This document shows, piece by piece, positions 23,447-25,687 of a stretch of 39,076 nucleotides of DNA. Numbering within the stretch: position 1 is the first letter of the stretch; each line of letters begins with the position of its first letter. The stretch lies in contig JAICNY010000003.1 of assembly GCA_025930955.1 (NCBI GenBank), positions 1 through 39,076 of the forward strand. Reading direction: 5' to 3'. The translations under genes and the position numbers were made by a program. The notes beneath the pieces are model-generated. The model was not told where the DNA came from. It did no database searches and was given only the letters and a program-made list of their open reading frames with translations. The DNA comes from Thermoleophilia bacterium (lineage in GTDB: Bacteria; Actinomycetota; Thermoleophilia; Gaiellales; Gaiellaceae).

Positions 23447-24604
23447 CTAGCCCATCCCGATGCGCTGCGCCTGCTGGAGGGCCTTGCCCTCCGTCTTGAG
23501 CGCGGGCGCGAGCGCGATCTCGGCGCGCTGGAACTCGTGGATGTTCTCGTAGCCGCACGTCGCCATCGACGTCCGAAGCGCGCCCATGAGGTTGAGCGTC
23601 CCGTCGTTCTCGCGCGCGGGGCCGACGAGGATCTCCTCGAGCGTCCCGGCCGGCTCGACCTTCACGCGCGCGCCGCGCGGGAGCGTCGGATGGAACGTCG
23701 CCATGCCCCAGTGGTAGCCGCGCCCGGGCGCGTCCTCGGCGCGGGCGAGCGGCGAGCCGATCATGACCGCGTCGGCGCCGCACGCGATCGCCTTTGCGAT
23801 GTCGCCGCCGGTGCGCATCCCGCCGTCGGCGATCACGTTCACGTAGCGCGTCGTGTCGAGCAGGTGCTGCGCGCGCGCCGCCGAGGCGTCCGCGATCGCG
23901 GTCGCCTGCGGCACGCCGACCCCGAGCACGCCGCGCGTCGTGCAGGCGGCGCCCGGCCCGACGCCGACGAGCACGCCCTCGGCGCCCGTCCGCATCAGGT
24001 GGAGCGCGCCGTGGTACGAGGCGCAGCCGCCGACGATCACGGGGATGTCGAGCGAGGCGATGAACTCCTTCAGGTTGAGCGCGGAGCCGTTCGCCGAGAC
24101 GTGCTCGGCCGAGACGACCGTCCCCTGGATGACGAGGATGTCGAGCCCCGCCTCGCGGGCGGCCGGGTAGTGGTCGCGCACGCGCTGCGGCGTGAGCGCG
24201 CCGGCGGCGAGCACGCCCGCGGACTTGATCTCGGCGATCCGCTTCGGGATGAGCGACGGGTCGATCGGCCTCGCGTAGATCTCCTGCATCCCGCGCGTCG
24301 CCTCGTGCGGGCCGAACGACGCGATGCGCTCGAGCTCGCTCTCCGCCTTGGCGTAGCGCGTGAAGATCCCCTCGAGGTTCAGGACGCCGAGCCCGCCGAG
24401 CTTGCCGATCTCGATCGCGGTCTTCGGCGAGACGACCCCGTCCATCGCCGACGCGAGAAGCGGCAGCTCGAGCAGGTGGTCGCCGAGCTTCCAGCCGATG
24501 TCGACGTCGTCCGGGTCGCGCGTCCGGCGGCTCGGGACGATCGCCACGTCGTCGAACCCGTACGCGCGGCGCGCCTTCTTCCCGAGCCCGATCTCGACGT
24601 CCAC
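23447..24604 (-). CDS. guaB3: GuaB3-family IMP dehydrogenase-related protein
   Basis: A 385-residue IMPDH/GMPR barrel without CBS domains. It reads [20 protein letters not shown] at the start, has [14 protein letters not shown], the nucleotide loop with catalytic Cys221 ([15 protein letters not shown]) and a phosphate-binding [20 protein letters not shown]. GuaB3 forms a family distinct from canonical GuaB and is common in actinobacteria; its place directly before guaA supports a role in guanine nucleotide supply. GGGGGAG lies 7 nt before the GTG start. The stop of an upstream 27-codon leader ORF is one base away, and a terminator-like hairpin lies in that leader. Confidence 0.93.
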
Positions 24605-24605
24605 G

Positions 24606-24689
24606 CTAGCGCTCCCCCGGGAACGAAAAAGCCCAGGCGGACCGCGCTTGCCTGGGCACCAGGACGGAGGTTTCCGTCGCCACTCTCAT
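24606..24689 (-). CDS. candidate 27-codon leader peptide before guaB3
   Basis: An ATG ORF of 27 codons begins 8 nt after an extended -10 box, so it would sit at the 5' end of a leaderless mRNA. It starts MRVATETSVLV and ends FSFPGER, has rare AGA and AGG codons and one Trp, and spans both a small hairpin and the terminator. Its TAG stop is one base before the guaB3 GTG. It shows no run of one amino acid, so classical amino-acid attenuation is not indicated. Its translation is inferred only. Confidence 0.35.
   Translation of the reverse strand: MRVATETSVLVPRQARSAWAFSFPGER
24626..24657 (-). terminator. intrinsic terminator / possible attenuator before guaB3
   Basis: On the minus strand GCCCAGGC (24650-24657) pairs with GCCTGGGC (24631-24638) across an 11-nt loop, followed directly by TTTTT. 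This is the best intrinsic terminator in the window. It lies 70 nt past the fruK stop and 22 nt before the guaB3 start. An upstream CCTGG (24659-24663) can pair with CCAGG (24651-24655) inside the terminator's 5' arm, so a competing fold exists. Confidence 0.75.
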
Positions 24690-24697
24690 GCGGGGCG

Positions 24698-24706
24698 ATG
24701 CTAACA
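24698..24706 (-). promoter_or_regulatory. extended -10 promoter before guaB3
   Basis: TGTTAGCAT on the minus strand combines a TGn extension with TAGCAT. It lies 8 nt before the leader ATG and has no good -35. Transcription from here would cross the hairpins before reaching guaB3. Confidence 0.45.
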
Positions 24707-24727: not shown

Positions 24728-25687
24728 TCACGCGTCCTGGGCGACGGGCGCGAGCCGCTCGACCTTCACGAGATTCGAGACGCGGCTCACCGCGCGAGGG
24801 TCGAAGCGGCCCGGGCCGGGCTCGAGAATGGACGCCGCGCCGGCCGCGACGGCGGCGCGCACGGACTCCTCCACGTCCTTCCCCGCGATGCGGGCGGCGA
24901 GGAAGCCGGCCAGGAGCGTGTCGCCCGCGCCGATCGTCGAGACGACCTCGAGCCGGGGCGCGATCCCGCGCACGCGGTGGGCCTCGCGGTCGTCGCGGAC
25001 GAGCGCGTAGCAGCCGGTCTCGAGCGAGACGAGGACGTTGCGCGCACCGAGCTCGGCGATCTCTTCGAGGCCGTGCGCGAGGTCGTCGTCGTCCACGAAC
25101 TCGTGCCCGACGAGCGCCTCGGCCTCGCGGAGGTTCGGCGAGACGAGGAACGGCTCGGCGCCGACGCCGAGCCGGAGCGGCTCTCCCTCGGTGTCGAGCA
25201 CGGTGAGGATCTGCTGCTTCGCGAGGTCGCGGACGAGCTCGCCGTAGAACGCGGGGTCGACCCCGCGCGGGAGCGAGCCGGCGAAGACGACGAACTCGGC
25301 ACCCTGGGTGAGGTACGCGAGCTTCTCGCGGAGGGCGTCGAGCTCCGCCTCGCTCACCTCGGGGCCCCACTCGTTGACCTCCGTGTACTGGTCGGAGATC
25401 GGATCGAGGAGCGCGACCGACGTCCGCGACTCGCCCTCGATCCGCACGAAGTCGTTCAGGATCCCCTCGTCGGTCAGGAGGTCGGCGACCTGCGCGCCGT
25501 TTCGCCCGCCCAGGAACCCGGTCGCGACGACCGGCACGCCGAGGTGCCGGAGCGCGCGGGCGACGTTCACGCCCTTCCCGCCCGCGCTCGAGAGCGCGAG
25601 GCTCGCGCGATGCCGCTGCCCGAGCTGGAAGTTCGGGACGAGCAGCGTCCGGTCCATGGCCGTGTTGAGGGTGACGGTGACGATCAC
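24728..25687 (-). CDS. 1-phosphofructokinase family hexose kinase (PfkB)
   Basis: A 319-residue PfkB-family sugar kinase. The first signature is SSAGGKGVNVARALRHLG and the second is STIGAGDTLLAGFLAARIAG, whose Asp is the catalytic base. The start VIVTVTLNTAMDRTLLVPNF is typical of FruK/LacC/PfkB members that phosphorylate fructose-1-phosphate, tagatose-6-phosphate or fructose-6-phosphate. No PTS genes lie nearby, so the substrate is open. Its GTG overlaps the dacA stop by 4 nt (GTGA), an unusual pairing of a sugar kinase with a cell-wall enzyme. Confidence 0.9.
   Translation of the reverse strand: MIVTVTLNTAMDRTLLVPNFQLGQRHRASLALSSAGGKGVNVARALRHLGVPVVATGFLGGRNGAQVADLLTDEGILNDFVRIEGESRTSVALLDPISDQYTEVNEWGPEVSEAELDALREKLAYLTQGAEFVVFAGSLPRGVDPAFYGELVRDLAKQQILTVLDTEGEPLRLGVGAEPFLVSPNLREAEALVGHEFVDDDDLAHGLEEIAELGARNVLVSLETGCYALVRDDREAHRVRGIAPRLEVVSTIGAGDTLLAGFLAARIAGKDVEESVRAAVAAGAASILEPGPGRFDPRAVSRVSNLVKVERLAPVAQDA

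What the first reader, a model, noticed from the sequence alone, without database searches (positions are those of the whole stretch)
24602..24706. Promoter, leaderless leader ORF and terminator/antiterminator before guaB3-guaA
In about 100 nt the minus strand holds an extended -10 (TGTTAGCAT), a 27-codon ORF whose ATG would be at the RNA 5' end, a small hairpin (GACGG/CCGTC, 24663-24678) and a strong hairpin with TTTTT (24626-24657). CCTGG at 24659-24663 can pair into the 5' arm of that terminator, giving two exclusive folds. The leader ORF stop is one base before guaB3. The simplest alternative is that the hairpin only ends fruK transcription. If regulatory, this would be an attenuator controlling guanine nucleotide synthesis; I do not recognise it as a known purine riboswitch.
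Basis: partly seen in the sequence, partly recalled or inferred. Interest (0 to 1): 0.65.

Follow-up and report, generated by a model that had tools for sequence, protein, structure and literature searches.

The report
Terminator leader before guaB3-guaA genes
The genes that commit this soil actinobacterium to making GTP are preceded by a short RNA leader with a built-in stop signal for transcription, kept in many distant relatives, so it looks like a real brake on guanine nucleotide synthesis, although what releases the brake is not known.

Summary
Related genomes show that the promoter and terminator are real and belong to guaB3. The same extended -10 lies upstream of guaB3 across Thermoleophilia, followed in several families by a leader whose terminator-like hairpin mostly starts 40-60 nt after it. 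The hairpin covaries (5 pairs with double-sided changes, 0/500 shuffles on the covariation score). It also stays with guaB3 where the upstream gene points the other way, so it is not simply the fruK terminator. Close relatives carry the same promoter directly at the guaB3 start codon, with leader and terminator missing. This is attenuator architecture on the guaB3-guaA operon. GuaB3 appears to be the only IMP dehydrogenase in this genome.

The CCTGG antiterminator is absent from the nearest relatives, and pairing of the 5' arm is at chance level across 51 leaders. The leader ORF is only suggestive. A start codon sits near the RNA 5' end in 34 of 58 leader clusters (14% background), but the peptide shows no codon-level conservation and its openness is barely above chance.

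Best reading: a conserved premature-termination leader. Release through leader translation (pyrBI-like) or polymerase speed is possible but unproven. New variant of a known kind.

The parts
24698..24706 (-). Extended -10 promoter element P1 (TGTTAGCAT) of guaB3
   Evidence: TGnTAnnnT found at the corresponding place upstream of guaB3 in most Thermoleophilia examined; abuts the guaB3 start codon in sister genomes without a leader
24606..24689 (-). Candidate leader ORF, 27 codons plus TAG, ATG 8 nt after the -10 (near or at the RNA 5' end); runs through the terminator
   Evidence: Start codon 5-12 nt after the -10 in 34/58 leader clusters vs 14% background and 11/40 terminator-less leaders; no codon-position bias, weak openness signal: suggestive only
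24663..24678 (-). Small hairpin GACGGA-AACC-TCCGTC
   Evidence: Present, -7.6 kcal/mol; not seen at the same place in G016, G041, G040 by eye
24659..24663 (-). CCTGG proposed as antiterminator strand
   Evidence: 5-bp pairing possible (-5.4 kcal/mol) but absent from nearest relatives and at chance level: rejected as a conserved switch
24631..24657 (-). Intrinsic terminator hairpin (8 bp perfect stem, 11-nt loop)
   Evidence: Only perfect CCCAGGC..GCCTGGGnTTT match in its own genome; hairpin in the same place in relatives with compensatory changes
24626..24630 (-). U-tract TTTTT of the terminator
   Evidence: Sequence; no T-run on the other side, so it points towards guaB3
24609..24616 (-). Shine-Dalgarno-like G-rich stretch (GGGGGAG region) upstream of the guaB3 GTG
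   Evidence: Sequence; would let guaB3 be translated from a read-through transcript
23450..24604 (-). guaB3, IMP dehydrogenase family
   Evidence: TIGR01304, 534 bits; the only clear IMP dehydrogenase catalytic domain found in this genome
21864..23450 (-). guaA, GMP synthase
   Evidence: NF000848/TIGR00884, 786/493 bits; adjacent to guaB3 in 86 of 104 loci
24728..25675 (-). fruK-like 1-phosphofructokinase, upstream gene
   Evidence: TIGR03168, 282 bits; upstream of most but not all leader-bearing guaB3 genes

Best explanation
The minus-strand stretch 24706-24604 is the promoter and 5' leader of the guaB3-guaA operon. Transcription starts just after TGTTAGCAT, and about 65 nt later reaches an intrinsic terminator placed before guaB3, so part of the transcripts stop there and only read-through RNA makes IMP dehydrogenase and GMP synthase. 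Comparison of genomes supports the promoter, the terminator and their place in guaB3's own leader. That termination is conditional, so that this is a regulatory attenuator rather than a fixed brake, is inferred from its wide but patchy retention on a GTP-committing operon. The release step is not resolved. There is no conserved antiterminator helix and no known aptamer. The candidate I find most likely (about 0.35) is kinetic: a ribosome that starts at or near the RNA 5' end on a mini-ORF running through the hairpin melts the terminator when RNA polymerase is slowed, for example by low GTP, as in E. coli pyrBI.
For: P1 TGnTAnnnT upstream of guaB3 across the class, with two distance classes: about 35-45 nt without a terminator and about 90-135 nt with one. 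Hairpin mostly 40-60 nt after the -10 in f1, f2, f5, f6, f8 and f10. Covariation: 5 pairs with double-sided changes, 91.7% of cells paired, 0/500 shuffles on the covariation score, collapse when slid; likewise for f10. Stringent terminators in 38/205 guaB3 upstream regions against about 2 expected. Same promoter, no leader in G006, G011, G022, G090; leader in G000, G016, G041, G040. Leader kept with divergent upstream genes in L038, L042 (NAD(P)H-binding) and L053 (aminoacyl-tRNA synthetase). No canonical GuaB in this genome. For the mini-ORF: start codons 34/58 against 14% background, CTG depleted near the 5' end (7 of 42) against elsewhere (46 of 102).
Against: No RNA data: start site, termination and read-through are unmeasured. 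The leader is missing in several close relatives, so it is dispensable. The mini-ORF shows no third-position bias, its openness is near chance, many leaders use TTG, which is ineffective at leaderless ends in Mycobacterium smegmatis (PMC4633059), and 24 of 58 clusters have no start codon there. In E. coli a terminator within the first 100 bp of a coding region is hardly repressed by the ribosome (PMC4824070), so a polymerase pause must be assumed.
Confidence: 0.62

Rival explanations
1. Constitutive brake: the terminator is real and in the guaB3 leader but only lowers P1 output by a fixed fraction, with no signal.
For: No conserved antiterminator, no conserved leader sequence beyond short lineage-specific boxes, no Rfam match; repeated presence/absence between close relatives with the same promoter.
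Against: Kept in at least six families with compensatory changes and fairly constant spacing; a weaker promoter would do the same job more simply (inference).
Confidence: 0.25
2. The hairpin merely ends fruK transcription, and guaB3 has another promoter.
For: fruK lies directly upstream here and in 56 leader-bearing loci in all; hairpin plus U-tract is a standard terminator.
Against: The conserved promoter lies between fruK and the hairpin; sisters with fruK and the promoter have no hairpin; the hairpin persists with divergent upstream genes; no promoter-like site was seen in the 21 nt between U-tract and start codon.
Confidence: 0.06
3. RNA switch: small hairpin and CCTGG antiterminator against terminator, with a ligand such as guanine or GTP.
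For: The pairings exist in this sequence.
Against: CCTGG is missing in G016, G041, G040; arm pairing at chance over 51 leaders; CCUGG/CCAGG is -5.4 against -15.8 kcal/mol for the terminator; no Rfam hit even at E 1.
Confidence: 0.03
4. A short non-coding RNA gene (promoter plus terminator) that happens to sit before guaB3.
For: Promoter, about 65 nt of RNA and a terminator; terminated RNAs would accumulate.
Against: Leader sequence differs between families while the layout persists; the same promoter drives guaB3 directly in sisters; no second promoter seen in this window.
Confidence: 0.04

Closest known systems
E. coli pyrBI (pyrL) attenuator
   Same: Nucleotide-synthesis operon; intrinsic terminator in the leader; candidate leader ORF running through the terminator; no antiterminator helix needed
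   Different: No evidence here for a nucleotide-sensitive pause tract; the mini-ORF is unproven and would start at or near the RNA 5' end rather than from an SD site; no sign of homology; class Thermoleophilia
Leader-peptide attenuators such as trp, and ilvB1 in Mycobacterium tuberculosis
   Same: Promoter, short uORF (candidate only, here), intrinsic terminator before a biosynthetic operon in an actinobacterium
   Different: No run of regulatory codons, no conserved antiterminator, ORF extends through the hairpin instead of ending before it
Leaderless polycysteine short ORFs of mycobacteria (cysteine attenuators)
   Same: Short ORF at or near the RNA 5' end upstream of a biosynthetic operon
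   Different: Those act through cysteine codons and are described as translation attenuation (PMC13236596); here there is a transcription terminator and no codon bias seen
Guanine (purine) riboswitch with terminator before guaA/guaB genes
   Same: Controls guanine nucleotide genes by premature termination
   Different: No aptamer: no Rfam match at gathering score or E 1; leader before the hairpin is only about 30-40 nt and not conserved

Membership tests
Transcription attenuator (terminator in an operon's own leader) | Promoter upstream of the terminator drives the operon | tested here: met
   By comparison, not by RNA mapping: P1 conserved; same P1 at the start codon in leaderless sisters; kept with divergent upstream genes
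Transcription attenuator (terminator in an operon's own leader) | Intrinsic terminator structure under selection | tested here: met
   Covariation 0/500 shuffles; 38/205 vs about 2 expected
Transcription attenuator (terminator in an operon's own leader) | Read-through changes with a signal | not testable with these tools
   Needs RNA or reporter data
pyrBI-type attenuator | Translated leader ORF that overlaps the terminator | tested here: inconclusive
   Start codon enrichment 34/58 vs 14%; no codon-position bias; openness 40/44 vs 36.6 expected
pyrBI-type attenuator | Nucleotide-sensitive polymerase pause before the terminator | not testable with these tools
   No pause data
trp/ilv-type leader-peptide attenuator | Mutually exclusive antiterminator and terminator | tested here: not met
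   No conserved antiterminator; arm pairing mean z -0.24 over 51 leaders
trp/ilv-type leader-peptide attenuator | Run of regulatory codons in the leader peptide | tested here: not met
   Leader peptides listed, read by eye, show no shared codon run
Purine (guanine) riboswitch | Conserved aptamer | tested here: not met
   No Rfam match

The most novel reading that the evidence does not exclude
A class-wide, translation-coupled attenuator of GTP synthesis: a ribosome loading at or near the RNA 5' end on a mini-ORF that runs through the terminator decides, without any antiterminator RNA, whether IMP dehydrogenase and GMP synthase are made, linking GTP supply to transcription-translation coupling.
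Probability: 0.25. Interest if true: 0.72.

Novelty: new variant of a known kind. Interest (0 to 1): 0.5.

Why it matters
GTP level sets growth rate and stress tolerance in bacteria, and IMP dehydrogenase is its entry point. In this genome GuaB3 seems to be the only IMP dehydrogenase, so a leader that stops its transcription early would be a main control point. No described regulator of guaB3-guaA in Thermoleophilia turned up in the papers I searched. The sister genomes with and without the leader offer natural test pairs, and the possible mini-ORF would make 5'-end translation coupled to termination directly testable.

Tried and rejected
CCTGG antiterminator and general antiterminator search: at chance level. 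Codon conservation of the leader ORF: no third-position bias in close pairs. ORF openness as proof: GC-rich frames are open anyway; weak against shuffles, somewhat better against the other two frames. Reading CCTAGGAT before guaB3 in Solirubrobacterales as a second promoter: judged more likely a Shine-Dalgarno sequence, because AGG stays while the T-A positions vary (GCAAGGAT, GCGAGGAT, CTGAGGAT), which keeps P1 as guaB3's promoter there; not tested statistically. Stop codons near the guaB3 start as a sign of coupling: largely forced by the guaB3 codons (GAAATTGAG, GAAGTAGAG). Rfam: nothing. The hairpin search picks the best hairpin per leader, so its count is generous; one search is the stringent one.

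Full report
What was checked. From the window alone they are not clearly above chance. The simple scan finds one terminator-like site in 9 kb against 1.6 in shuffles and no sigma-70 promoter, and the leader folds at z = -1.6. The genes are guaB3 (TIGR01304), guaA and an upstream fruK-like kinase.

Relatives. I collected upstream regions of guaB3 from about 205 distinct loci, by named contigs and by whole-genome searches in order and class with stretches fetched. Named relatives are Thermoleophilia, Solirubrobacterales and more distant Actinomycetota. Below, f1 is the window's own family and the other f-numbers are families as labelled by the search tool.

Promoter. TGnTAnnnT recurs upstream of guaB3 throughout Thermoleophilia. 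Its distance to the start codon falls into two classes: about 35-45 nt where there is no terminator, and about 90-135 nt where there is one. In f1, G006, G011, G022 and G090 have this promoter directly at the start codon, while the window genome, G016, G041 and G040 have a leader with a terminator in between. G041 and G022 are congeners with nearly identical promoter sequence, so leader and terminator differ as a block while the promoter stays. This ties the promoter to guaB3 and the terminator to guaB3's leader.

Terminator. A hairpin followed by a T-rich stretch sits mostly 40-60 nt after the -10 in f1, f2, f5, f6, f8 and f10. In the CCCAGG-type set (18 sequences from f1, f2 and f5) five pairs have changes on both sides, 91.7% of cells pair, and none of 500 shuffles reaches the covariation score; sliding the partner by one to three bases destroys it. 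The f10 set behaves likewise. Counted stringently, 38 of 205 upstream regions hold such a terminator where about 2 are expected from its density in the same loci. In the window's own genome this hairpin pattern occurs once, here.

Not the fruK terminator. Of the leader-bearing loci, 56 have fruK directly upstream and 27 show no fruK within 600 nt. In L038, L042 and L053 the upstream gene is divergent (NAD(P)H-binding proteins and a class I aminoacyl-tRNA synthetase) and the leader with terminator is still there. No upstream transcript needs ending there.

Switching. The proposed CCTGG antiterminator is absent from G016, G041 and G040. Over 51 leaders, pairing of the terminator's 5' arm with upstream sequence is no stronger than with shuffled upstream sequence (mean z -0.24; window -0.1). 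CCUGG/CCAGG is worth -5.4 kcal/mol against -15.8 for the terminator. Rfam gives nothing at gathering scores or at E 1. The two-fold switch and the riboswitch reading are therefore not supported.

Leader ORF. A start codon lies 5-12 nt after the -10 in 34 of 58 leader clusters, against 14% in other windows of the same leaders and 11 of 40 in terminator-less leaders (Fisher p 0.004). Near the 5' end the NTG triplets avoid CTG (7 of 42 in cluster representatives) although CTG is the commonest NTG further in (46 of 102). That is a start-codon-like signature. Against it: no third-position bias between close relatives, and openness through the hairpin of 40/44 against 36.6 expected from shuffles, though 62/88 in the other two frames. 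In the window the frame is open for 477 codons anyway. Many leaders use TTG, and mycobacterial work found ATG and GTG but not TTG effective at leaderless ends (PMC4633059). I treat the ORF as possible, not shown.

How it may work. Shown by comparison: promoter, terminator and their place in guaB3's leader. Inferred: premature termination limits guaB3-guaA. Speculative: the release step. With no antiterminator RNA, two simple routes remain: a ribosome on a 5'-end ORF that melts the hairpin, or polymerase speed alone. E. coli data show that a terminator in the first 100 bp of a coding region is only slightly repressed by translation unless the polymerase pauses, as in pyrBI (PMC4824070; PMC5021804). 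A pyrBI-like scheme would thus need a pause, for example at low GTP. The alternative of a fixed brake without a signal remains open.

Context. The window genome has no protein over the cut-off for canonical IMP dehydrogenase; apart from GuaB3 the hits are short and weak, the best one to the part of the profile outside the catalytic core. Of the f1 genomes searched, the five with GuaB3 lack canonical GuaB, and of the five without GuaB3 four have it over the cut-off and one just below. A 2026 study of Synechococcus elongatus treats GuaB3 as its IMP dehydrogenase, with guaB3 and guaA mutations suppressing loss of (p)ppGpp (PMC13273366). So the leader sits on a real control point for GTP.

Known systems. 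Mycobacterium tuberculosis ilvB1 is controlled by a classical leader-peptide attenuator (PMC13236596), and mycobacteria have leaderless polycysteine short ORFs acting as attenuators (Canestrari et al. 2020, cited there; not read here). Neither matches in detail. I found no report of a guaB3 leader terminator in the papers searched, but the library holds only part of the literature.

Verdict. Observation confirmed; attenuator layout supported; the specific switch not supported; the leader ORF undecided. New variant of a known kind, moderate interest.

Noticed in passing
L254 (G018), L257 (G005), L256 (G030); In the window's family GuaB3 and canonical GuaB look mutually exclusive; in G018, and apparently G005, canonical guaB occupies the same place after the fruK-like gene, in G018 with an abutting promoter, as if one IMP dehydrogenase had replaced the other in situ.
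   Followed up: partly
L257 (G005), upstream of canonical guaB, about 1280-1420 of the reverse complement: Canonical guaB in G005 also has a short leader with a 5'-end ATG ORF and a hairpin (no U-tract), the ORF stop overlapping a candidate guaB start (GTGA).
   Followed up: no
L038, L042, L059, L145, L166, L223 (about -78 to -99 from guaB3) and L077, L080, L128, L133 (upstream of P1); A palindrome CGCAnnnTGCG is about six-fold enriched upstream of guaB3 in several relatives (13 in 61 kb vs 8 in 217 kb); it could be a regulator site.
   Followed up: partly
L036, L167, L168, L172, L173, L176, L183, L186, L190, L196, L200 leaders: A box GGTTGCCGCC (or near variants) shortly after the promoter is shared by many f10 leaders, also by some without a terminator; function unknown.
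   Followed up: no
L059 (record title): Contig titled Bifidobacterium breve MAG carries a guaB3 and leader of the Solirubrobacterales type (its leader matches L223); the label looks wrong.
   Followed up: no
L120 (G020): The 5' end of guaB3 (codons around KKARQA) appears twice, about 0.1-0.2 kb apart, upstream of the intact start.
   Followed up: no
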